NCBI RefSeq assembly: GCF_029953285.1
Contig: NZ_JASAOI010000022.1
Coordinates: forward strand, 62,001-126,000
Length of the DNA: 64,000 nucleotides
Direction: 5' to 3'
DNA from: Yinghuangia seranimata
Lineage (GTDB): Bacteria > Actinomycetota > Actinomycetes > Streptomycetales > Streptomycetaceae
The translations under genes and the position numbers were made by a program. The notes beneath the pieces were generated by a model. The model saw nothing but the letters and a program-made list of their open reading frames with translations, was not told where the DNA came from and made no database searches. Below are positions 51,875 through 64,000 of the stretch, one piece after another. The first letter of the stretch is position 1. Every line of letters starts with the position of its first letter.

Positions 51875-53851
51875 CTAGATCGCCACGTCCATGATCAGGT
51901 CGGCGAGCTGCTCGTCGATGCGGTTCAGCTCCCCGGCGTAACGCCGCAGGTCGGCGCCGGTCTTCTTGGCGTCCTCCTCGCCCTGCTCCTTGGTCTGGAG
52001 CGCCTGGCCGACCTCGTCGCGGATGGACTTGATCTCGGCGTCCAGGCCCTGGGCGATGGCGTCGCGCATCGTGCGGAGCTGCTTGGTGACCTCGTCGCCC
52101 AGGTTCGTGACGTCCTGCTCGACGCGGCCGCGCAGTTCCTCGACGACGGTCTCGGCGACCTGCTCCTTCATCCGCTGGTTGGCCTTGTTCAGCTGCAGCG
52201 CGCCGCGGAACAGGTTGCCGCCCAGCAGCATCGCGAAGATCGCCACCGGGCCCAGGCCGACGAAGACCGCGATCGCGCCGACGGCGATCTGCGGGAGCAG
52301 CGTCGTGAGCATCGTGCGGAGGCTGAACTTGCCGCCCGTGAGCGCGGTGCCCGGGTCGAGCACGAACGAGACGGCGTCGGCGAGCAGGCGCTCCAGCGGC
52401 GCGGCCTTCTCGTTGACCTTCATGATCTGCGTCTCGGCCTCGTCGCGGGTCAGCGAGGCGCGGATCTCGTCGATGCGCGTGACGAACTGCTTCACGTCGT
52501 CGTCGATGGACCGCTCCAGGTCCTCGACGCGGCGCTGCAGCAGCGGCTTGAGCTCCTTCTCCTGCCACTCGGCGAACGCGACCTGGATGCGCCCCGACAG
52601 GTGGTCGGAGATCTCCTTGACCGCGGCCTCCATCTTCTCGCGCGCCTTGAACGGGTTGGCGCCGAGCGTGTTCTGCGGGTCGTACTCGCGGGCCCAGCCG
52701 GGGACCTGGCCGATCACGCGGTTCATGAACCGGCGTCCGGCGTCCTCGACCTCGCCGCGGGTCTCCCGCAGGTGGCCTTCCATCTGCGCGACGATGACGC
52801 GCCGGTTCTGCTCGAGGCGGGTCAGCGGGACCTGCACGCGCTCGTAGGTGGCGCGCAGGTCGTCGACGTTCTGCGTGAGCAGGGCCTCGCGCCGGTCGAT
52901 CTGCTCGCGGGCCTCGATCAGTAGGTACTTGAGCTCGCGCGCCGGGGAGAGGATCTTGGCGCGGCCGCGCTCGCGGGTGAGGAACTCCTCCAGCGCGCGC
53001 TCCAGTTCCACCATGCCGGACTCGCCGACGAGCGCCGGGTCGTCCTTGCGGCGGCCGTTGAGCGCGGCGCGCGCGTTGACGAAGAACACCCGGTCGGGGC
53101 GGGACACGTAGGGGCCGAGGCGCTTGCGGATCTCCCGCTTGACGTCCTCGCGCTCCTCGTCCTCCACCAGGTTGATCTTGTTGCCGACGTAGAAGACGTC
53201 CTCGTGGCCGCGCGCCTTGACGTGCACGTCGAGGAACAGCTGCTCGCTGCGCGACATCGCGGCCTGGCAGTCCACCACGAACACCAGCACGTCGGCCTGT
53301 TCGAGGTACTGCAGGGTGACGCGCTCACGCTCGGGCGCCTCGTTGAGCCCGGGGGAGTCGACCACCACGACGCCGTTGCGGCACAGTTCCAGCGGCCAGC
53401 GCACGACCGCCCGCTGGTACGGGTTGGGCGTGTTGTCGTCGTCGGCCCCGATGGTGACGTAGTCGACGATCTCCTCGACCTTGATCGGGATCGGGTCCCC
53501 GGCGCTGCCGTCCGGCTCCAGCGGGTAAATGAGGGCCGAGCGTTCGTCGGCCCACATCACCTCGTTGATGATCGCGGTGCACGGCCGCGCGAAGGACGGC
53601 AGCACCTTGTCGCCCAGCATCGCGTTGATGACCGTGCTCTTGCCGCGCTTGAACTCGCCGACGATCATCACCTTGAACGCCTCGGACGCGGCGCGGGTCC
53701 GCACCGAGGCGAGCTTCTTGACGCCGCTGCCGATGGAGAGCCCGGAGATGATCGGCGTGAGCCGGTCGATGAGCTCCACCAGGGTCTCCTGGCGGGCCCG
53801 CCACGCGCTGTATCCGCCGCCGGTGCCCTGCGGCATGCGATTGCCTTCCAC
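51875..53851 (-). CDS. dynamin-like GTPase 1 with membrane hairpin
   Basis: 658 residues. The G domain has P-loop GEFKRGKST (65-73), the switch Thr in RPCTAI, DSPG (165-168) and NKIN (224-227; Asn replaces the usual Asp of NKxD). A long helical bundle follows (REQIDRREALLTQNVDDLRATYERVQ), then a hydrophobic hairpin at about 510-546 (LLPQIAVGAIAVFVGLGPVAIFAMLLGG) and a C-terminal coiled coil. This is the layout of bacterial dynamin-like proteins and IniA that bind and remodel membranes. The GTG start has a GGAGGGAGGGAG site upstream. Last gene of the four-gene set, 91 bases after dynamin 2. Confidence 0.9.
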   Translation of the reverse strand: MEGNRMPQGTGGGYSAWRARQETLVELIDRLTPIISGLSIGSGVKKLASVRTRAASEAFKVMIVGEFKRGKSTVINAMLGDKVLPSFARPCTAIINEVMWADERSALIYPLEPDGSAGDPIPIKVEEIVDYVTIGADDDNTPNPYQRAVVRWPLELCRNGVVVVDSPGLNEAPERERVTLQYLEQADVLVFVVDCQAAMSRSEQLFLDVHVKARGHEDVFYVGNKINLVEDEEREDVKREIRKRLGPYVSRPDRVFFVNARAALNGRRKDDPALVGESGMVELERALEEFLTRERGRAKILSPARELKYLLIEAREQIDRREALLTQNVDDLRATYERVQVPLTRLEQNRRVIVAQMEGHLRETRGEVEDAGRRFMNRVIGQVPGWAREYDPQNTLGANPFKAREKMEAAVKEISDHLSGRIQVAFAEWQEKELKPLLQRRVEDLERSIDDDVKQFVTRIDEIRASLTRDEAETQIMKVNEKAAPLERLLADAVSFVLDPGTALTGGKFSLRTMLTTLLPQIAVGAIAVFVGLGPVAIFAMLLGGNLFRGALQLNKANQRMKEQVAETVVEELRGRVEQDVTNLGDEVTKQLRTMRDAIAQGLDAEIKSIRDEVGQALQTKEQGEEDAKKTGADLRRYAGELNRIDEQLADLIMDVAI

Positions 53852-53942
53852 TGCTCTCCCTCCCTCCGCGGCGCCCGCCGGACCGCTGCCGCGGTCCGGT
53901 CCCCGTGCGTGCGGACCTGCGGATCATACGGTCATAGGACGG

Positions 53943-56534
53943 TCAGCGGGCGCCCGCGGTCTCCCCGTCGATCAATGCGCTGACCCCGGTGATCAATTCC
54001 TGGGTGCGGTTGAACAGTTCCGGCCAGTTCGGCCCGTCCGTGCCCGCCTTGTTCAGCGCCGCGAGCCGGTCCTGGCGCCACGCCTTCTGGCCCCGCACCG
54101 CCTCGTCCATGACCCCGGCGTACAGCGTGTACAGCCGCTCGGAGACCTGCTCGGAGAACCCGGACAGCACCTGCTCCACCGCCGGCTCCAGCGCCTTCGC
54201 GGCCGCCGCGCGCTGCCCGTCGGTCAGCGACCCCGACTTCACCTCGCCCAGCACCATGCCGCCGACCGACGCCGCCATGCCCGCGCCCATCGGCATCGAC
54301 AGACCGCCGGTGAGCGGGATCAGCAGCATGCCGAGCACCGCGATACCGCTCGGGCCGATGCGCCACGCCAGCTTGCGGCTCTTGAGGTCCTTCAGACCCA
54401 GGTCCTCGGCCTCGTTCAGCTCGAAGTCGGTCGACAACTGCTCGGCCTTGTCGACCTTGAGCTGGGTGCCCTTGCCGAAGTGCCGCTTCATCTGCGCGTC
54501 GAGCCACTGCAGGTCGGCCTGCACGCTGGAGTGCAGCTGGCCCTCGTACTTCTTGGCCATGCCGGTGAGTTCGCGGCGCAGCCGGAACGGCAGGTCGCGC
54601 TCCCACCACGTCTTCGGGTCGGGGGTGCGCTCCATCTCGTAGCTCAGCACCCCCATCAGCTCCTCCTGCGAGGTCGCCAGGTGCTCGCGGAACTTCTCGG
54701 CGGTGGTGCTGCGGCGTTTCTGCAGCTCGACGCGGACCTTGCCCCACTCGGCGGTCATGTTGTCGATCTGGACCTCGGCCTCCTCGGCCGCGCGCCGCTT
54801 GTCCTCCTCGCTGAGCGCGCTGTCCGCGACACCGCCGCGGGCCAGTTCGCCCATCTCCTCGAGCAGCGCCAGCAGCTGGCCCGCGGTCTGCCGGGCGCGC
54901 ATCGCGCGGCGCCCGCCCGACTGCGCGTACTCCTCGAGTCGCGCGCGCACCGCGGCGATCGGCGCGGAGTCCTCGCGGTGCGGGCCCGCGAGCACCTCCA
55001 GCACCGGCGAGATGCGCCGCACCCGGCCGCCGAGGTAGTCGACGATGTCCTCGCGCTCGTCCTCGTCGACGGTGTCCAGCTTGGAGACGACCACCGTGAT
55101 CCGCGGCACGTGCCGGGCGATGACCTCCTCCTCCAGGAACGAGGTCTCCGAGATGCCCAGCGGCGCGCTCGCCGACACCACCATGAACACCGCGTCGCTC
55201 GCGGCGACGGTACGCCGGACCAGGTCCTGCGCCTTGTCGTCGTCGGTGTCGCCGGCCAGCCCCGCGTTGACGCCCGGCGTGTCGACGATCTCGACGTCCA
55301 GACGCGCCAGTTCCGGGTCCTCGACGAGCACCCGCACGCCGACGAGCGCGTCGTCGCCGGTGGCCGCCGCAGCCGCCTCGACGGCGTCCCACGACGACGC
55401 CAGCGCCGGCCGCGGCTCGCTGCGCCCGTCCGCGAACTGCAGCTCCAGGCGGGCCTCCGGGCCGGGCGCGACGACCACCGGCACGCGCGTGTGCCGGCCC
55501 TCGGGGACCACCTTCGCCCCGAGCAGCCGGTTCACCAGCGACGACTTGCCGCGCCCGAACTCGCCGATGACCGCGATGCGGAAGCCCGGGCGGCGCATCC
55601 GCGTGCGCAGCCGGTCGATCTCCGTGCTCACCTGGGACAGGCCGAAGCGGTCGGCCAGCTCCTGAGCCTCGGCGATCGGCGTACTGAGCGCGGCACCCGA
55701 CGACTTCACCAGGCCCGGCGATCCGGCGGAGCCGACCGCCTGCCCGGTGCGCGCCGCGGGTGCCGCGGCGACGGCCCGCTGGGGTGGAACGCCCGCCGAG
55801 GACGGACCGGTGGCACGCGCGGGCGGGGCCCCCGCCCCCCGAGGCGCGGCACCGGCCGGGGCCGCCTGCGTCGCAGCGGGACGCTGCGGCGCGGTCCTCG
55901 ACGGGCCGGGTAGACCTGCGGAGCCGGCGTCGGCGGACCCGGCCGCCGAACGCGAACGCGCCTCGCGGCCCGCGCCGTTCGGCGCCACCTGCAGCCACGC
56001 CCGGGTGCTCGGCACCAGCACGTGGTAGATCGGGTACGCGGCGCGCGGCAGCACCTGCGCATACGCGCGGGTGAGCAGCTTCAGGTCGCGCTCGACCGGC
56101 TCGGACACGAACCGGGTCAGCGTCTGGAAGAACCGCGCGCGGGCGGCCAGCGCCTCGGCCTGCATGGACAGGTTCCACGCCGACTCGTGCCCGGCGCCCT
56201 TGGCGAGCATCGCGGCGACGTCGGCGTTGTCGGCGAGCGCGACGTGCGAAAGCACCTTCTGCGAAGGCCACTCCCACGAGACGGCGCCCCACGCGGGGGA
56301 GACGTCGATGACGGGCGCCTGCGGGGTGCGGCGGCCCACGGCGACGAGCGCGGTCAGCGTCCAGGCGCCGTCCACCCGCTCGGGCACCGGCGGCAGGGCG
56401 ATCGACCCGCCCTTGAGCCAGCCCCTCAGTTCGGCGCTGCGGTGGATGCCGCCGAGCAGGCCGGCCACACCCGCCTGACGGCGCGGCTGGGACTGGGCGA
56501 CGCGGGCGTTGACGGCCTCACGGTCGATGGTCAC
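53943..56534 (-). CDS. dynamin-like GTPase 2 with extra N-terminal domain
   Basis: 863 residues. Residues 1-185 form a helical domain of unknown type (WLKGGSIALPPVPERVDGAWTLTALVAVGRRTPQAPVIDVSPAWG; NLSMQAEALAARARFF). A disordered Pro/Ala/Arg linker spans about 185-290. The G domain then has GEFGRGKSS (324-332), DTPGVNAGLAGDTDDD and VVSKLDTVDEDE (SKLD as G4). Helical stalk follows, with a hydrophobic stretch at about 730-762 (GIAVLGMLLIPLTGGLSMPMGAGMAASVGGMVLG). GTG 56534 was chosen at the beginning of the ordered sequence; the longer open frame upstream crosses the C homopolymer and is low-complexity. Confidence 0.87.
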   Translation of the reverse strand: MTIDREAVNARVAQSQPRRQAGVAGLLGGIHRSAELRGWLKGGSIALPPVPERVDGAWTLTALVAVGRRTPQAPVIDVSPAWGAVSWEWPSQKVLSHVALADNADVAAMLAKGAGHESAWNLSMQAEALAARARFFQTLTRFVSEPVERDLKLLTRAYAQVLPRAAYPIYHVLVPSTRAWLQVAPNGAGREARSRSAAGSADAGSAGLPGPSRTAPQRPAATQAAPAGAAPRGAGAPPARATGPSSAGVPPQRAVAAAPAARTGQAVGSAGSPGLVKSSGAALSTPIAEAQELADRFGLSQVSTEIDRLRTRMRRPGFRIAVIGEFGRGKSSLVNRLLGAKVVPEGRHTRVPVVVAPGPEARLELQFADGRSEPRPALASSWDAVEAAAAATGDDALVGVRVLVEDPELARLDVEIVDTPGVNAGLAGDTDDDKAQDLVRRTVAASDAVFMVVSASAPLGISETSFLEEEVIARHVPRITVVVSKLDTVDEDEREDIVDYLGGRVRRISPVLEVLAGPHREDSAPIAAVRARLEEYAQSGGRRAMRARQTAGQLLALLEEMGELARGGVADSALSEEDKRRAAEEAEVQIDNMTAEWGKVRVELQKRRSTTAEKFREHLATSQEELMGVLSYEMERTPDPKTWWERDLPFRLRRELTGMAKKYEGQLHSSVQADLQWLDAQMKRHFGKGTQLKVDKAEQLSTDFELNEAEDLGLKDLKSRKLAWRIGPSGIAVLGMLLIPLTGGLSMPMGAGMAASVGGMVLGEVKSGSLTDGQRAAAAKALEPAVEQVLSGFSEQVSERLYTLYAGVMDEAVRGQKAWRQDRLAALNKAGTDGPNWPELFNRTQELITGVSALIDGETAGAR

Positions 56535-56689
56535 GGAGGTGTTCCTCTCCCAATTAAGTCTGGTTGGAGCGAATACGGGCGGGTGCGGTCGGCGCGCGTC
56601 GGGGGACGCTGGGGGGCGTGCCGCGCGGTACGGGGACGTGCGCGGACGTGGGGGCGGAGCGCCGGGCCGCACGGCCCGGTCGGCGGCGT

Positions 56690-56775
<86 letters not shown>

Positions 56776-56827
56776 ACGACCGCCTGGAGCCGGCCCCGGG
56801 CGTCCCCGGCGCGAGCCCCTAGGTGCG

Positions 56828-58663
56828 TCAGCTGCCGGCGGCGGCCGGAGCGTGCGCGATCACGGTCTGGTTGCCGCTGTCGGCCCACGCGTTGGTGAAG
56901 TCCTCGAGCGCGATGGCCTGGGTCTGACCCTCGGGCCAGCTCGGGTCGTTCACGATGACGTACGCGGAACCGTCGGGCTGCACGTCGACGCCGGTCACCC
57001 ACACGGTGTTCATCAGCGGCGGGTTCTGCTCGATCGGCTGGCCGGTCACCGCGTCGTGCAGCGCGTCGCCGGTCTCGTTGGTGTCGACGACCGCGATGAC
57101 CTGGTCGCCGTGGTCCAGCGCGTTGATGATCGTGTCGACGTTCGCGTCGTACACCGTCGTGGTCTCGATGCCGTGCATCTCCAGCAGGCCGCCCACGTCG
57201 GTGTTGAGCATGCCGCCCTGCGCCTGGTCCCACAGGCCGCCGGCCTGGGCCTGCTGCAGGAACGCCTGCTCGTTGTACGGCTCGCCGGTCATCGCCTCGA
57301 CGATGCCGCCCTCGACGGCGAGCGGCGCGTGCGCCGGGTCCTCGACACCGTGGAAGAACTGCGCGGCGTGCGCCGGGTCGCCCGAGCCGTCGAAGTCGGC
57401 CAGGGCCCACTCGGGCGAGTAGTGCGAGATCTCGAACGAGTTGTACGGCGCGTCGGCGGCCGGGTCGTGGCCGTCGTAGTGCGGCTCGACCGGCAGGTGC
57501 GAGTCGTGCGTGTCGTGCGTCGGCGCGGGGGCCTCGTGCGTGTCGTGGGCCGGAGCCGGGGCCTCGTGCGGCTCGGGCGCGACGACCGGCGCCGCCTCGT
57601 GCGTGTCGGGCGAGTCGTCGACCGGGGCGTAGGTGTCGGCGTCCGCGCTGCCGTCGTAGGAAATGTCGGCCGGGTCGCCGGAGTACACGTCGCCGTCGAT
57701 CGTGACGTCCACGTCGATGTAGATCGAGTACGCGTCGTACGAGGCGTCGCCGAAGCAGCCGTCGTAGACGTCGAAGTCACCGCCGTACGGGCCCTGCTCG
57801 TACGGGTTGTAGTTCGGGTCGCCGTACGGGTCGTAGCCGGGGTCGTAGCCGTCCGTCGCGAACGGGTCCTCGTACGGGTACTCGGTCGGCATCTGCTCGG
57901 GGTCGTAGCCCTCGTAGCCGTTGTGCGGGGCCGGGCCGTCGTGCGGGGCGTGACCGTCGTGCGGGACCGGCTCGGCGTACGGATCGTCCGACACGTCGGT
58001 CGGGCCGTCGTAGACGTGGCCGTTCTCGGCGTAGTAGTGGTCGTAGCTCGGGTCGGACGGGTCCAGGCCCACGTTCGGGTCGTTCGGGTCGTGCCCGGCG
58101 GCCTGCGCGTCCGTCTGGTCCTGGAGGTCCTGCTGCGCACCCGGGTCGGTGTTGTCGTACGGGTCGCCGTACGGGTCGTCGGTGCCGGGCTCGACGACGT
58201 CCAGCGGCGTGCCGTCCGGGTTCAGGCCGTGCGCGGCGGCGTCGTCGACCTGGTCCTGGATCCACGGGTCGGTGTGGCTCGGGTTGGTCGCCCACTCGGG
58301 CGGCTCGACCGGCGAGCCGTCCGGGTTGAGGTCGCCCTGCGCCTCCGAGTCGGCCGGGTTGTACACCGAGGAGTCGTCCAGCGCGGGCCCGGAGATGTCG
58401 CCGTCGAGGCTGGCGGCCGGGTCGTCCAGCGCCGGGCCGGAGATGTCGCCGTCGAGGTTCGCGGCCGGGTCGCTCGGCTGGAAGTCGGAGCCGGGCGGGA
58501 CGTCGTCGCTGAAGTCGATCTGGTCCAGGTCGCCGCCGATCGAACCGGTCTCCCAGAGCTGGTCGTTGCCGGGCTCGTCGCCGAACGAGTGGTCCATCGA
58601 CGTGTCGTCGTAGCCACCGCTGTCGAGACCGTCGTAGGCGTCGTCGTGGTAGTGCTCGGTCAT
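56828..58663 (-). CDS. acidic repeat protein with degenerate C39-peptidase-like C-terminal domain
   Basis: 611 residues. About 1-390 is extremely Asp/Gly/Tyr/Pro-rich (duplicated DGDISGPALDDPAASL-type units, many DPYGDP and YDPGYDP segments) and should be disordered. Residues about 410-611 resemble a C39-like papain fold: AHAPLAVEGGIVEAMTG, AQAGGLWDQAQGGMLNTDVGGLLEMHGI, VIAVVDTNE, VWVTGVDVQPDGSAYVIVNDP, IALEDFTNAWADS. By recalled alignment the catalytic Cys is His445 and the His is Asn552, so it is probably inactive. No signal peptide. ATG 58663 overlaps the stop of dynamin 3 (ATGA), so they are translationally coupled. It holds the place that IniB has in iniBAC. Confidence 0.75.
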   Translation of the reverse strand: MTEHYHDDAYDGLDSGGYDDTSMDHSFGDEPGNDQLWETGSIGGDLDQIDFSDDVPPGSDFQPSDPAANLDGDISGPALDDPAASLDGDISGPALDDSSVYNPADSEAQGDLNPDGSPVEPPEWATNPSHTDPWIQDQVDDAAAHGLNPDGTPLDVVEPGTDDPYGDPYDNTDPGAQQDLQDQTDAQAAGHDPNDPNVGLDPSDPSYDHYYAENGHVYDGPTDVSDDPYAEPVPHDGHAPHDGPAPHNGYEGYDPEQMPTEYPYEDPFATDGYDPGYDPYGDPNYNPYEQGPYGGDFDVYDGCFGDASYDAYSIYIDVDVTIDGDVYSGDPADISYDGSADADTYAPVDDSPDTHEAAPVVAPEPHEAPAPAHDTHEAPAPTHDTHDSHLPVEPHYDGHDPAADAPYNSFEISHYSPEWALADFDGSGDPAHAAQFFHGVEDPAHAPLAVEGGIVEAMTGEPYNEQAFLQQAQAGGLWDQAQGGMLNTDVGGLLEMHGIETTTVYDANVDTIINALDHGDQVIAVVDTNETGDALHDAVTGQPIEQNPPLMNTVWVTGVDVQPDGSAYVIVNDPSWPEGQTQAIALEDFTNAWADSGNQTVIAHAPAAAGS

Positions 58664-60855
58664 ATTCGGGAACCCCCCCGAGTAGTGAGGCGTTCGCGCT
58701 GGGCGTTCACCGTCGCGCGCCGCCTTTCCGTTTGCCTGCTCGCGTCCTGCAGCAGGGTCCTGCGCGCCGCGAGGATGGCCTCGCTGCGGTGGTGCTCGGC
58801 CACCAGCTCGGCGACCGTCCGCTCGTACGTGGCCCGGTACTGCTCCACGTGCGCCCGCACCGTCTCCGCGTAGTGCTCGGTCGCGGTCTCGATGGCCTCG
58901 CCGATCTGCCGGGCCAGCCCGGTCGCGACCGTCTGGAGAGTCTGATGCATTTCGGCCCGCGCGTGGTTCCGCAGCGCGTGCATGTCCGTGGTCGCCAGCG
59001 AGTCGGCGATCCGGGCCGCGAACCCCCCGAGACCACCGCGTGTTTGGGCGTCCGGAGGCGGGGGAGGCGCGACCGGCGGTTGAGGCGGATATGCGGGGGG
59101 TCTGTCCGGAATAGGTGGCCGGAATTGCCCTGATCCGCCCGGCGGTTGGGGTGGCGGCAGGGTCGGCTTCGCGGGCACCCCGGGGGGCTGGGGAGGCCCG
59201 CTCGGCTGAGGCGGGGAGGCGAACCATTGGTCGACTCCGGAGCCGATCGGTCCTGATCTTGTTGCCTGGCGGCGAACCGCCCGTAGCTGTTGTGTGACAC
59301 CCGAGACGTTGGACTCGTACGCCTGAAGGGCGTTCTTCGCCAACTGCTGCCCGGACACCACGGTGATCTTGGGCCGGGCGAGGCGCACCGCCTCCTGGTC
59401 GAGCTTGGCGTACTCGGCCTCGAACGCCGTCTCGACGACGCCCTCGGCCTCGCGCGCGCCGTCGGCCAGCGCCGAGGTCACGGCCTTCTGCACGACGTCG
59501 CCGATCCGCGGCAGGTCGCGCCGGATCAGGTCGGGCACGTCGGAGCGGATGACCCGGCGTACCGCGTCGGGATGCGGCGCGGCGTCGATCGCGTCGTCGA
59601 TCGCGCGGTGGATGTACTGCTGCCACTGCGCGGCCATCGCGCCCACCGCGCGCCGGGCGTTCTCCGCGCCCGCGTCGACCAGCAGGCCGGCGCGGACGCC
59701 GAGCCGGGACGCGAAGCCGGCGAGGTCGGAGATGCGCGCCGCCCCGAGCTCGGCCTCCTCGGTGTCCAGCCGCCGTTGCGCGTCGGCCAGTTCCGTGCCC
59801 AGCTCGCCGAGCACGTCCTCCAGCAGCCGCAGCAGGTGGTCGGACACCGCGATGATGCGCTGGCGCTGCATGGCGTCCCGCAGCCGGGCGAGGAACGCGG
59901 GGAACGCGTCGGCCCAGTACTCCTGTTCCGGTCCGCGCAGCGGCCGCCCGGTGGCGCGGCGCAGCACCGCGTCGGCGGCGACGCCCTCGACGACGACGTC
60001 GTCGACGCCGAGCATCCGCGCGTAGCGGCGGCGCACGTGGTTGAGCAGGTCGTCGTGCTCGTCGTCCTCGACGTGGTCCATCTTCGTGACCAGGAAGACG
60101 CAGCGGCGCAGCAGCGCGGGGTCGAGCGCGTCGGTCAGGAAGTCGGTCAGCGACGTGGACGCGGGCGACGCCGACGGGCTGAGCACGGCGGCCAGGTCGG
60201 CCTCTTCGCGCATCACCTCGGTGGTGATGTCGGTGTGCCCGACCTCGGCGTTGGTGCCGGGGGTGTCGATGATCACCAGGCCGTCGCGCAGCGGCGTGGC
60301 CGGGTGCCGCACCTCGAGGTAGGCGAGGTGCGGCGCGATGCGCTCGTCGGCGGTCAGCAGCGACAGGATGCCGGCGGTGTCGTCAGGCACGCGCAGGTAC
60401 GGCGCGAGGTGCAGGAGCATGCGCCCGAGCGGGCTCGCGGCGCCCGCGGTGCGGCCGGCGGGGTAGATGTAGCGGATCCCGTCGTTGCGGAACCGGACTT
60501 CGAGCGTGAACTCGGGTCCGTGCGTGATCCGGGTCGCGGCGGCGGTGGTGCGCAGCGCCGAGGTGGGGAGCAGGTCCTCGCCGAGCAGCGCGTTGATGAA
60601 GGTGCTTTTTCCGGCCGAGAACTCGCCGATGACCGCGAGGTAGTAGCGGTCGTCGTTGAGGCGTTGTTCGACGGCCTGGACGCGTTTGGTGAGCTCGGCG
60701 AGCCGGTCGCGGTCGGCGACGGTGCGGCGGACCAGGCGCAGCGCGAAGTCGAGGTGATCGGACACCTCGGTGAGCGCTTCGATCGTGTCGAGGCGTTCGT
60801 CGCGCCCGACCTCGGACCGGGATCCGTCCGGCCCATGAGACATTCCCACGTGCAT
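58660..60855 (-). CDS. dynamin-like GTPase 3 with Pro-rich insert, no membrane segment
   Basis: 731 residues. The G domain has GEFSAGKST (77-85), switch TTAAATRI, DTPGTNAEVGHTD (197-) and VTKMDHVEDDE (TKMD 257-260). A helical stalk follows, then a Pro-rich insert (about 545-615: PPQPSGPPQPPGVPAKP, PPQPPVAPPPPP) and a C-terminal helical part (LRNHARAEMHQTLQTVATGLARQIGEAIE). No hydrophobic hairpin is seen, unlike dynamins 1 and 2; it may reach membranes through its partners. First gene of the minus-strand set; the ATG has GGGGAG upstream. The stop overlaps the acidic-protein start by 4 bases. Confidence 0.9.
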   Translation of the reverse strand: MHVGMSHGPDGSRSEVGRDERLDTIEALTEVSDHLDFALRLVRRTVADRDRLAELTKRVQAVEQRLNDDRYYLAVIGEFSAGKSTFINALLGEDLLPTSALRTTAAATRITHGPEFTLEVRFRNDGIRYIYPAGRTAGAASPLGRMLLHLAPYLRVPDDTAGILSLLTADERIAPHLAYLEVRHPATPLRDGLVIIDTPGTNAEVGHTDITTEVMREEADLAAVLSPSASPASTSLTDFLTDALDPALLRRCVFLVTKMDHVEDDEHDDLLNHVRRRYARMLGVDDVVVEGVAADAVLRRATGRPLRGPEQEYWADAFPAFLARLRDAMQRQRIIAVSDHLLRLLEDVLGELGTELADAQRRLDTEEAELGAARISDLAGFASRLGVRAGLLVDAGAENARRAVGAMAAQWQQYIHRAIDDAIDAAPHPDAVRRVIRSDVPDLIRRDLPRIGDVVQKAVTSALADGAREAEGVVETAFEAEYAKLDQEAVRLARPKITVVSGQQLAKNALQAYESNVSGVTQQLRAVRRQATRSGPIGSGVDQWFASPPQPSGPPQPPGVPAKPTLPPPQPPGGSGQFRPPIPDRPPAYPPQPPVAPPPPPDAQTRGGLGGFAARIADSLATTDMHALRNHARAEMHQTLQTVATGLARQIGEAIETATEHYAETVRAHVEQYRATYERTVAELVAEHHRSEAILAARRTLLQDASRQTERRRATVNAQRERLTTRGGSRI

Positions 60856-61147: not shown

Positions 61148-61978
61148 ATGCGCTCTGCCCGCATGCGGCTGGCCGGTGCCGCCGTCGTCCCCCTCCTGCT
61201 CCTCGGCACCGCCTGCAAGTTCGGCTCCGACGACAAGAGCGACAAGAAGGACAGCACCGCCCAGAACGCCGGCGCGTCCGCCCCCGCCCAGGCCCCGGCC
61301 TCCAGCGCGCCCGCCCCCGCCGCGTCCCCGTCCGACACCGCGAAGGCCCCGGCCGGCAAGGCCCTCGACGCCGCGAAGCTCAAGACCACACTGCTCACCG
61401 CGAAGGACCTCCCGGCCGGCTGGTCGGTCGCCCCCGCGGCCAACGGCGGAACGCAGCCGGCGAAGATCACGCCGCCGGTCTGCCAGCCGATCTACGACCT
61501 GCTCTCCGGCGACGGCAAGCGCAACCCCGTCGCCCAGGCCACCGAGACCATGAAGGGCCCCGGCGACACCGGCGTCTACACGGTCCAGCTCGCCGAATTC
61601 GCGCCCGGCACCGCCCAGGAACTCCTGGACAAGGCCGCCGCGGTCGCCGACAACTCGACCAGCACGCCCTGCCTGGACTTCTCCGCGAAGGACGCCAAGG
61701 GCGTGGTCACGCTGTTCGAGCTGAACGTCACCACCGACAAGGTCGGCAAGCTCGGCGACGGCACCCTCAGCCTGCTGCTGACCTACGGCGACGAGAAGTC
61801 CATGAAGAACCCCTCCGAGGCCAACCCCAGCGGCATCCTGACCATCGTGCGCAGCGGCAACGCGCTCGTCGGCATCAGCGGCGTCGGCGACCCGACGACG
61901 GGCAACTTCCCCAAGGACCTGCCCAACACGATCCTCAAGACGCAGGTCGACAAGGTGGCCACGGCCCGCAAGGGCTGA
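61148..61978 (+). CDS. predicted lipoprotein, tandem family member 1
   Basis: 276 residues: signal region MRLAGAAVVPLLLLGTAC with lipidation Cys23 (Gly at -3, slightly unusual), then an Ala/Pro/Ser linker (about 35-75) and a domain beginning LLTAKDLPAGWSVAP, followed by PVCQPIYDLLSG, VYTVQLAEFAPGTAQELLDKA, CLDFSAKD and ILTIVRSGNALVGISG. The Cys pair and fold layout recall the PknH extracellular sensor-like domain of actinobacteria. Anchored outside the membrane; a ligand is not known. The domain is shared with the next two genes. Confidence 0.8.
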   Translation: MRSARMRLAGAAVVPLLLLGTACKFGSDDKSDKKDSTAQNAGASAPAQAPASSAPAPAASPSDTAKAPAGKALDAAKLKTTLLTAKDLPAGWSVAPAANGGTQPAKITPPVCQPIYDLLSGDGKRNPVAQATETMKGPGDTGVYTVQLAEFAPGTAQELLDKAAAVADNSTSTPCLDFSAKDAKGVVTLFELNVTTDKVGKLGDGTLSLLLTYGDEKSMKNPSEANPSGILTIVRSGNALVGISGVGDPTTGNFPKDLPNTILKTQVDKVATARKG

Positions 61979-62076
61979 CCCGACGGGCGGGGCCGCGTCG
62001 TCGTACGCGATGATGCGGCCCCGACTGCGTTGTTTCGTAGTTGTCCCGCAACGGACATCCGACGAGAGGAGCCGCG

Positions 62077-62958
62077 GTGCCCGCCCCTTCCGCGCCGCTG
62101 CGCCGCCTCGCCGCGAGCGCGGCCGCCGTCGCGGTGGCCGCCGCCGGAGCCGCCGGATGCCGGGCCGAGGCCGTGCGCGATCCGCTGGGCGCGGCGCTCG
62201 TGACCGCGAAGGACCTGCCCGACGGGTGGACGCCGACCACCAAGCTCCCCGACGACCGGACCGGCCCCGCGTCCCGCCCCGAATGCCAGCCGGTCGCCGA
62301 CCTCGTCCAAGGCGGCGGCGACCGAATACGCCCCGGCGCCACGGCCCGCACCGGCCTCGTCTCCCAACTCGCCCCGGCGGGCACCTTCGCGATCACCCTC
62401 CGCTCCTACGAACGCGGCGCCGCCGAAGCCCTCCTCACCGCGGGCCGCACGGCACTCCCAACCTGCGAAACGTTCGAAGTCCGCGACCCGAGCGGCGACG
62501 CCGACTACCGCCAGACCCTGACCCCCGCCCCAGGCCTCGGCGACGAAGCCCTCCACGGAACGGTCACCACCCGCCGCCGCGGCGCCGAACGCACCGTCAC
62601 GTACACGATCGTCCGCATCGGCGACGTGGTGGCCCAGTTCATGTCGTCCGACCCGAGCGCCTACGCCCCGGTCACGATCCCGGACGCGATAGTCCGCACC
62701 GCACTCGCCAAACTCCCCCCGCACGGCCGCCCGTCACCCCCGACGAGCACCCCCGCCGCCCCGACGGACACCAGGCCCGCGACGACCGCCCCTGCCGCCC
62801 CGACGGACACCAAGTCCCCGACGGCACCCGAGGGTTCCCCGCCGCCCGCGGCCAACCCGCCCGCGGCCCCGAGCGCTCCGACCGCCCCGGCGACACCGCC
62901 CCCGGACCCGGGGACGCCCCCAGCCCCGCCGACGACTGCCCCGACCCCGGCGGGATAA
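62077..62958 (+). CDS. predicted lipoprotein, tandem family member 2
   Basis: 293 residues: signal region with AAGC as the apparent lipobox (weak, Ala at -3), then ALVTAKDLPDGWTPTTKL, RPECQPVADLVQGGG, FAITLRSYERGAAEALLTAGRTALPTC and YTIVRIGDVVAQFMS. The same domain order as the gene at 61148, plus a Pro/Thr/Ala tail of about 80 residues not found there. GTG 62077 was chosen because GAGAGGAG lies upstream. Probably sits on the outer face of the membrane with the tail extending into the wall. Confidence 0.75.
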   Translation: MPAPSAPLRRLAASAAAVAVAAAGAAGCRAEAVRDPLGAALVTAKDLPDGWTPTTKLPDDRTGPASRPECQPVADLVQGGGDRIRPGATARTGLVSQLAPAGTFAITLRSYERGAAEALLTAGRTALPTCETFEVRDPSGDADYRQTLTPAPGLGDEALHGTVTTRRRGAERTVTYTIVRIGDVVAQFMSSDPSAYAPVTIPDAIVRTALAKLPPHGRPSPPTSTPAAPTDTRPATTAPAAPTDTKSPTAPEGSPPPAANPPAAPSAPTAPATPPPDPGTPPAPPTTAPTPAG

Positions 62959-63520
62959 CCGCGACAGACGGAACGAGGCGGCCAGCGCACAGGCACCGCT
63001 CCGTGCGGACCGGTGCGGGCCGCTGCGGTAGTCAGAGCCTCGCGTGCGCGCACATCGCCGCCCGACTCGCCGGCGGCTGAGGGGCCCCGCCGACCGCGGC
63101 CGAAGCGACCGCGGAACCGAGCGCGTTGCCCACACCGACGACCACGGACACCCCAACCACCCCGGCGGCGTGGCCCCGGCAGGATCCCCGGACAGCAGCG
63201 GGTCCTCTGCGGCGGTCAGAGCCTCGCACCCACATCGGCGCCCAACCCGTACTCGGTCGCACTTGGAGGACAGCGGGCTCTGACGGCCGTCCTGGCAACG
63301 CGGCGGAGCGAGCGCAGCGAGTGAGGGGGTGCTTAGGCCGAAGGAGGGGTCGGAGGGCCTGGTGCGGCCTCGTCGCGGCTCTGCTCGCGGAGGGGTCTCG
63401 TCGGGCTGGTGGGCTCGTCGGAGGGGTGGGGGCGGTGGGGGCTCGGGTGCGGGCGTGGGGGTTTGTGCGCGATGATGCCTAACTTGCCGCCGACCGCACC
63501 GTCCGTCGAGGGACCGTTTC
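62959..63520. other. gap with imperfect direct repeat, no gene seen
   Basis: 562 bases without a supported gene. Two related blocks, 63022-63068 and 63206-63249, share CTGCGG, GTCAGAGCCTCGC, CACATCG and CGCCC in order, about 184 bases apart. GAGGGA before 63521 is the ribosome site of the next gene. Confidence 0.45.
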
Positions 63521-64000
63521 ATGCGCACCACCTCCCGTCGCCTGCTCGCCTCCGCCGCACTCCCGACGCTGGTCGTCGTGGCCGCGTGTGCCGCCGGCGG
63601 GGGGAAGGGCGGGGGGACCGTGCCGGTCGCTGCGAGTGCGCCTGCGCCGGCGTCCGCTCCGTCGGTGGTGGGTGCTCCCGGTCAGGCGGCCGAGGCGGGG
63701 GCCTCGTTGGCGCCCGAGGCGTTGCCCGGGGTGCGGCTGGTGCAGGCGGATCTGCCGCCCGGGTGGTCGATCGGGGAGAAGGCCACCGACGACGACACCG
63801 GCCGGACCGAGCGGCCCGAGTGCCAGCCGTTCGCTGACCTGATGACCGGGTCCGGCGCGGGGGTCGCCCCGACGGGGTACGGCGCGGTCGGCCTGGTCGC
63901 CGACGGCAAGGAGGACGCGCTGTTCTCCATCAGCATGCGCACCTACCGCCCCGGCGACGCGCCCGCGCTGTTCGACGCCGCCAGGGCCGCGCTGGCCGCG
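63521..64000 (+). CDS. predicted lipoprotein, tandem family member 3 (cut by window end)
   Basis: At least 160 residues, open at the window end. MRTTSRRLLASAALPTLVVV followed by lipobox VAAC (Cys23), a Gly/Lys then Ala/Pro linker, and the family domain: VRLVQADLPPGWSIGEKATDDD, RPECQPFADLMTGSG, YGAVGLVADGKEDALFSISMRTYRPGDAPALFDAARAAL. It clearly matches the genes at 61148 and 62077 (DLPxGW and CQPxxDL blocks), closest to the second. GAGGGA lies ten bases before the ATG. Confidence 0.8.
   Translation, partial: MRTTSRRLLASAALPTLVVVAACAAGGGKGGGTVPVAASAPAPASAPSVVGAPGQAAEAGASLAPEALPGVRLVQADLPPGWSIGEKATDDDTGRTERPECQPFADLMTGSGAGVAPTGYGAVGLVADGKEDALFSISMRTYRPGDAPALFDAARAALAA

What the first reader, a model, noticed from the sequence alone, without database searches (positions are those of the whole stretch)
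51875..60855. Four-gene locus with three different dynamin-like GTPases and an acidic pseudo-peptidase
Seen: four consecutive minus-strand genes, three with full dynamin-type G motifs but different extra parts (a membrane hairpin in 1, an extra N-terminal domain plus hydrophobic stretch in 2, a Pro-rich insert without membrane segment in 3), and one acidic protein overlapping dynamin 3 by 4 bases. Known: bacterial dynamins remodel membranes; mycobacterial iniBAC pairs a non-GTPase with two dynamin-like proteins; some bacterial dynamins protect against phage or envelope stress. Inference: the three GTPases form a hetero-oligomer with the acidic protein as scaffold or trigger, in envelope stress, sporulation septation or phage defence. 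It sits after hemW, where Streptomyces normally has hrcA-dnaJ, as I recall.
Basis: partly seen in the sequence, partly recalled or inferred. Interest (0 to 1): 0.78.

Follow-up and report, generated by a model that had tools for sequence, protein, structure and literature searches.

The report
Three-dynamin operon with dead peptidase partner
Three different dynamin-like membrane-remodelling proteins and a very acidic papain-like (C39) protease form a four-gene set that recurs in the same order in actinobacteria, cyanobacteria and acidobacteria, and in this organism's genus the protease has lost its catalytic residues, which links dynamins to a protease partner we could not find described before.

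Summary
Minus-strand genes D3, AC, D2 and D1 (60855 to 51875) encode three dynamin-like GTPases and one acidic protein. The same order, D3-AC-D2-D1, occurs in six related actinobacterial genomes (window included; a seventh is split over two contigs), five cyanobacteria and two acidobacterial MAGs. In a maximum-likelihood tree D1, D2 and D3 are each one clade across phyla, so the three paralogues are old and travel together. Many streptomycetes, one Pseudonocardiaceae and Nostocales carry D3-D2-D1 without AC.

AC is a papain-like C39 domain behind a long acidic tail. Its catalytic Gln, Cys and His are kept in the other dynamin-linked copies examined, including the sister genus. All three species of the window's genus have lost them, so 'pseudo-peptidase' is correct.

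D2 carries a ~180-residue N-terminal domain with no match in the structure libraries searched. In 386 cyanobacterial genomes it was found only with AC. In an Anabaena plasmid it is a separate gene between the C39 gene and two dynamins.

Best reading: a three-component dynamin complex to which the C39 protein docks through the D2 N-terminal domain. In this genus the C39 protein acts by binding, not cutting. Envelope maintenance is likelier than phage defence or sporulation, but the physiological role is untested.

The parts
58660..60855 (-). D3: dynamin-like GTPase (731 aa), first gene of the operon
   Evidence: Dynamin_N 9.1e-25; one clade with cyanobacterial, acidobacterial and Bacteroidota D3
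59044..59217 (-). Proline-rich insert of D3 (28 Pro in 58 aa) in the region where other D3 proteins have a Gly-zipper hydrophobic hairpin
56828..58663 (-). AC: acidic protein (611 aa, net charge -131, no Lys/Arg); start overlaps the D3 stop by 4 bases
57419..58663 (-). Acidic low-complexity tail of AC (415 aa)
56831..57418 (-). C39/papain-like domain of AC, catalytically degenerate
   Evidence: PF13529 1.7e-6 in 3 of 6 close relatives; fold match of the sister-genus model; alignment
57326..57328 (-). Ala446 at the position of the catalytic Cys (Ser or Thr in the two sister species)
57008..57010 (-). Asn552 at the position of the catalytic His (Ser or Gly in the two sister species)
56742..56775 (-). 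Run of 34 G in the gap between AC and D2; absent from relatives; tract or assembly artefact
53943..56534 (-). D2: dynamin-like GTPase (863 aa)
   Evidence: Dynamin_N 1.8e-20; one clade across phyla
55992..56534 (-). D2 N-terminal domain (about 181 aa), found only where AC is present; no known fold found
55635..55991 (-). Pro/Ala/Gly-rich linker between the D2 N-terminal domain and the GTPase domain
54246..54344 (-). Hydrophobic stretch of D2 (predicted membrane contact)
51875..53851 (-). D1: dynamin-like GTPase with bacterial helical domain (653-658 aa), last gene
   Evidence: Dynamin_N 5.8e-25 and PF21808 1.9e-21; most conserved of the four (94 and 92% in the genus, 80% in the sister genus)
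52217..52300 (-). Membrane hairpin of D1, conserved in essentially all D1 relatives

Best explanation
The four genes are an ancient co-inherited module that makes a heteromeric membrane-remodelling complex from three dynamin paralogues (D1 and D2 membrane-contacting, D3 cytosolic in this lineage), plus a C39-like partner (AC) that docks onto D2 through D2's N-terminal domain. In most lineages AC keeps a complete Cys-His-Asn site and probably processes or trims a component of the complex or a client, with the acidic tail as a regulatory or membrane-repelling arm. In the window's genus catalysis is lost and AC acts by binding alone, as an adaptor or brake. Shown: gene order, three-way paralogy, the C39 fold (on the sister-genus sequence), loss of catalytic residues, and co-occurrence of the D2 N-terminal domain with AC, with the domain as a separate gene elsewhere. 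Inferred: physical complex, docking, role of the tail, and envelope maintenance as the physiological role.
For: Gene order D3-AC-D2-D1 is kept in actinobacteria, cyanobacteria and acidobacteria. D1, D2 and D3 each form one clade with 100% bootstrap support across phyla. AC occurs once per AC+ genome, and in none of 10 genomes whose cassette lacks it. The D2 N-terminal domain was found in 5 of 386 cyanobacterial genomes, all five among the 9 with AC, and is a separate gene right after the C39 gene in the Anabaena sp. 90 plasmid (profile E 8e-9) and, weakly, in a Muribaculaceae cassette (E 0.024). In Chrysosporum one deletion removed the AC catalytic domain and the D2 N-terminal domain and joined the first ~15 AC residues in frame to D2. 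The AC domain has a papain/C39 fold (VIA Z 15.7 to Alr0975, 13.9 to a C39-like peptidase). Catalytic Gln/Cys/His are present in relatives and lost in three species. D3-AC translational coupling (1-4 base overlap) is kept. Published work holds that most bacterial dynamins sit in pairs and form hetero-oligomers (PMC6104087).
Against: No interaction, expression or phenotype data. One deletion can remove AC and the adjacent D2 N-terminal domain together, so their co-loss is partly explained by adjacency. The D2 linkers share no conserved cleavage motif such as Gly-Gly. AC evolves fast in the window's genus (dN/dS 0.48-0.96 for the C39 domain against 0.11-0.28 for the dynamins), so it could be decaying. 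Many functional-looking cassettes lack AC altogether.
Confidence: 0.55

Rival explanations
1. Protease-gated dynamin: the D2 N-terminal domain is an inhibitory prodomain that the C39 peptidase cuts off to switch the complex on, as OMA1/YME1L process OPA1 in mitochondria (from general knowledge). The window's genus has lost the cut.
For: Active-looking C39 in the other cassettes; D2 lacks the domain where AC is absent, as if pre-processed; a long flexible linker separates the domain from the GTPase domain.
Against: The window's genus keeps the domain with a dead peptidase; the domain is a separate gene in Anabaena; no conserved cleavage site in the linkers.
Confidence: 0.2
2. Phage-defence or membrane-damage suicide system of the Eleos (Leo) or DynA kind.
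For: Patchy distribution across phyla (19 of 385 family genomes, 9 of 386 cyanobacteria, 1 of 396 acidobacteria); presence of a related operon on a plasmid; DynA delays phage lysis in Bacillus (PMC9950537); weak LeoA/LeoBC profile hits.
Against: IniA-type control dynamins score as high against the Leo profiles; the C39 protein has no PADLOC or phage match; 58 neighbours of other cassettes give mainly generic kinase and HEAT-repeat models among the top PADLOC families; fixed chromosomal site in all six genomes of the two genera examined.
Confidence: 0.12
3. Septation or sporulation machinery like Streptomyces DynA/DynB.
For: Host family sporulates; DynA/DynB are reported to act with FtsZ in division and sporulation septa (cited in PMC9950537).
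Against: A separate, divergent dynamin pair exists elsewhere in the genome; the cassette is absent from most of the family and present in non-sporulating phyla.
Confidence: 0.08
4. AC is a decaying relic in this genus and only the three dynamins matter.
For: Catalytic residues lost; dN/dS near 1 for AC in some pairs; AC absent from many cassettes.
Against: Frame, position, D3 overlap and extreme acidity kept in all three species; dN/dS 0.48 for the C39 domain in one pair; D2 N-terminal domain kept.
Confidence: 0.15

Closest known systems
Nostoc punctiforme BDLP1 and the cyanobacterial Tandem A/Tandem B dynamin pair (PMC5827413)
   Same: D1 matches BDLP1 (2j68) over most of its length, including GTPase and helical domains (3.1e-32); tandem dynamins in cyanobacteria
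   Different: BDLP1 is only a distant relative even of the Nostoc D1 (141 bits); the paper's main text names pairs and gives no third dynamin, C39 protein or D2 N-terminal domain
Campylobacter DLP1/DLP2 heterotetramer (PMC6104087)
   Same: Different dynamins side by side in an operon, shown to form a hetero-oligomer that tethers membranes
   Different: Two dynamins, not three; no C39 partner
Mycobacterial iniBAC (PMC6715688)
   Same: Non-GTPase gene with two dynamin-like genes in an actinobacterium
   Different: IniA- and IniC-type relatives fall outside the D1, D2 and D3 clades; the non-GTPase is glycine-rich IniB, not a C39 protein. Rhodococcus plasmids do pair a dynamin, an Hsp70 and an acidic C39 protein
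LeoA/LeoBC (Eleos)
   Same: Dynamin-like proteins in one operon
   Different: Profile matches no better than those of unrelated dynamins
Peptidase C39_2 family (PF13529)
   Same: Domain family and fold of AC
   Different: Cytosolic-looking, with a long acidic tail, encoded with dynamins; catalytic residues lost in this genus

Membership tests
Bacterial dynamin-like proteins | Dynamin-type GTPase domain with G1, G3 and G4 motifs | tested here: met
   all three proteins
Bacterial dynamin-like proteins | Membrane-contacting hydrophobic segment | tested here: met
   D1 and D2 yes; D3 lacks one in this genus and its sister genus but most full-length D3 relatives elsewhere have it
Bacterial dynamin-like proteins | Hetero-oligomerisation and GTP-driven membrane remodelling | not testable with these tools
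   needs protein work
Peptidase C39-like | Papain-like fold and family profile | tested here: met
   PF13529 up to 1.7e-6 in 3 of 6 close relatives; Foldseek 8.7e-7 and VIA Z 15.7 on the sister-genus model; the whole window AC alone gives no Pfam hit
Peptidase C39-like (active enzyme) | Catalytic Cys, His and oxyanion Gln | tested here: not met
   Cys to Ala/Ser/Thr, His to Asn/Ser/Gly and Gln lost in the window's genus; present in the sister genus and in cyanobacterial, acidobacterial and plasmid relatives
NpBDLP1 / Tandem B orthologue group | Close sequence identity to NpBDLP1 | tested here: not met
   115-141 bits only
iniBAC | IniA and IniC clade membership | tested here: not met
Eleos/Leo defence system | Specific match to LeoA/LeoBC profiles above that of other dynamins | tested here: not met
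Streptomyces DynA/DynB | Orthology to the sporulation dynamin pair | tested here: inconclusive
   a second, divergent dynamin pair exists in the genome; no DynA/DynB reference sequence was compared

The most novel reading that the evidence does not exclude
A protease-controlled bacterial dynamin machine: a dedicated cysteine peptidase with an acidic arm, docked on one of three dynamins by a domain with no known fold found, switches membrane remodelling on or off by cutting a subunit, a bacterial parallel of OPA1 processing; in one genus the switch has become a pseudo-enzyme.
Probability: 0.25. Interest if true: 0.85.

Novelty: new variant of a known kind. Interest (0 to 1): 0.62.

Why it matters
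Bacterial dynamins are described as singles or pairs, and the dynamin papers consulted here named no protease partner in their operons. A three-paralogue module whose members are inherited together across phyla, with a dedicated C39-like protein and a docking domain with no known fold found, would give bacterial dynamin biology a defined regulator to test. The natural series of active, dead and deleted peptidase makes the function of that partner testable by comparison.

Tried and rejected
The genome search with D2 and D3 failed on the server, so their positions were read from fetched loci. Two surveys centred on loci failed until handles were obtained. Prodomain cleavage at a Gly-Gly site: no conserved motif in the linkers. 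Defence island: top PADLOC families of 58 neighbours are generic kinases, a HEAT-repeat model, mad6 and MkoA; only the first 25 of 71 families were shown, so this is not exhaustive. The Leo assignment was rejected because control dynamins score alike. No match for the D2 N-terminal domain in Pfam, PDB or viral structures; this does not show that the fold is new. AC or C39 in phage records: none. The L134 small protein next to its C39 gene resembles the D2 N-terminal domain by eye only and did not match the profile. The host genus is unnamed in the tools; a Yinghuangia/Embleya placement is my recollection of genome sizes and was not tested.

Full report
Observation. The four minus-strand genes are as described: D3 (58660-60855), AC (56828-58663), D2 (53943-56534) and D1 (51875-53836 or 53851). 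D1, D2 and D3 match Pfam Dynamin_N at 5.8e-25, 1.8e-20 and 9.1e-25; D1 also matches the bacterial dynamin helical domain. G1, G3 and G4 motifs are intact in all three. AC gives no family hit as a whole, has 131 Asp/Glu and no Lys or Arg, and its start codon overlaps the D3 stop by four bases.

Conservation of the set. Six genomes examined in two genera of the host family (window included) carry D3-AC-D2-D1 in one order and strand, next to hemW. A genome-wide scan with D1 and neighbourhood analysis found the same order in Oscillatoria PCC 10802, Oscillatoria Prado101 and two acidobacterial MAGs, and a cyanobacterial survey added three exact copies. In Streptomyces SID3343 the set is split over two contigs. 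A Muribaculaceae genome has AC, D2, D1 and D3 in another order, and two cyanobacteria pair AC-D2 with other dynamins. Streptomyces, Umezawaea and Nostocales genomes carry D3-D2-D1 without AC. A maximum-likelihood tree puts D1, D2 and D3 each in a single clade (100% bootstrap), each holding actinobacterial, cyanobacterial, acidobacterial and Bacteroidota members, with IniA/IniC-type proteins outside. The triplication is therefore old. The distribution is patchy: D1 in 19 of 385 genomes of the host family, AC in 9 of 386 cyanobacteria and 1 of 396 acidobacteria.

The acidic protein. The C-terminal ~200 residues match Peptidase_C39_2 in three of six close relatives (best 1.7e-6). A model of the sister-genus sequence (pLDDT 71.6) matches papain-like enzymes: Foldseek 8.7e-7 to Alr0975, VIA Z 15.7 to Alr0975 and 13.9 to a C39-like peptidase. 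The oxyanion Gln, catalytic Cys and His are present in the sister genus and in the cyanobacterial, Muribaculaceae and plasmid copies; Cys and His also in the acidobacterial ones. In the three species of the window's genus the Cys position is Ala, Ser or Thr and the His position Asn, Ser or Gly. All dynamin-linked copies examined are strongly acidic (-42 to -131). In the window's genus the C39 domain evolves faster than the dynamins (dN/dS 0.48-0.96 against 0.11-0.28); these are simple estimates in a very GC-rich genome and only the contrast between genes is used.

The D2 N-terminal domain. D2 of AC-bearing cassettes starts with a conserved ~180-residue domain, recognisable from actinobacteria to acidobacteria; D2 of AC-less cassettes lacks it. 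The same 386 cyanobacterial genomes searched with AC and with this domain gave 9 and 5 positives, the 5 all within the 9 (chance about 2e-9 without correction for relatedness). In the Anabaena sp. 90 plasmid a 187-residue protein between the C39 gene and two dynamin genes matches the domain profile at 8e-9 over 3345 ORFs; a Muribaculaceae protein in the same place matches weakly (0.024). This is a gene-fusion argument that the domain is the partner of the C39 protein. AlphaFold2 gives it a confident model (pLDDT 84.7) without a PDB or viral match. In Chrysosporum, against a 92% identical AC-bearing locus, 1,389 bases are missing: most of AC and the D2 N-terminal domain are gone and the first ~15 AC residues are fused in frame to D2. 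Because the two pieces are adjacent, one deletion suffices, so this case alone does not prove coupling.

Other partners. In the AC-less Streptomyces-type cassettes a ~360-residue protein with no Pfam match follows D1 directly (ten cassette loci, some from the same species). By eye it resembles a class III cyclase-like domain; this is untested. Rhodococcus plasmids carry an acidic C39 gene beside Hsp70 and dynamin genes.

D3 in this lineage. Most full-length D3 proteins elsewhere have a Gly-zipper hydrophobic segment; in the window's genus and the sister genus it is gone, and the window's genus has a proline-rich insert.

Mechanism. Published work finds most bacterial dynamins as operon pairs that form hetero-oligomers (PMC6104087), and cyanobacterial tandem pairs including NpBDLP1 (PMC5827413). 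By extension the three paralogues most likely form one complex. The C39 protein most likely docks through the D2 N-terminal domain; active versions may cut a subunit or client, and the window's version can only bind. Envelope maintenance is the default role for such proteins. Defence, sporulation and relic readings are weighed in the rivals section. No binding, cutting or phenotype was shown here.

Limits. Gene calls in fetched loci come from a simple script; named and unnamed collections overlap, so some loci are the same genome. The PADLOC neighbour check shows only the first 25 families and covers other cassettes' neighbours. Literature searches cover open-access full text only; no paper found there describes a dynamin operon with a C39 peptidase.

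Noticed in passing
window 56742-56775: Run of 34 G (minus strand) between AC and D2, absent from the relatives' gaps; the longest G/C run in the window. Could be a slippage tract or an assembly artefact.
   Followed up: partly
L029:4058-5146, L030:4744-5925, L086:11947-13011, L192:6096-7250, L195:11488-12750: A ~360-420 aa protein with no Pfam match (start 'MARYRRRLCLAVDLRHYSRH') follows D1 in AC-less Streptomyces-type cassettes, often with overlap; looks like an alternative fourth partner.
   Followed up: partly
L165:2577-13927 (Anabaena sp. 90 plasmid pANA01): Plasmid operon-like run: Hsp70, four hypotheticals, acidic C39 peptidase, stand-alone D2-N-terminal-domain protein, two dynamins, near a CHAT-domain gene.
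   Followed up: partly
L166:1-6173 (Rhodococcus plasmid): Dynamin-type GTPase, Hsp70, acidic hypothetical, acidic C39 peptidase and another acidic protein in a row; similar C39 matches on 26 Rhodococcus/Prescottella plasmids.
   Followed up: no
L065:8077-9930 against L157: Natural in-frame fusion of the AC start to D2 by a 1,389-base deletion.
   Followed up: yes
window 61148-64000 and L038:1-993: Run of small lipoprotein-like plus-strand genes without Pfam match, related to each other, beside the cassette in all three genomes of the genus.
   Followed up: no
L040:5263-8444: A second, divergent adjacent dynamin pair elsewhere in the window's genome.
   Followed up: no
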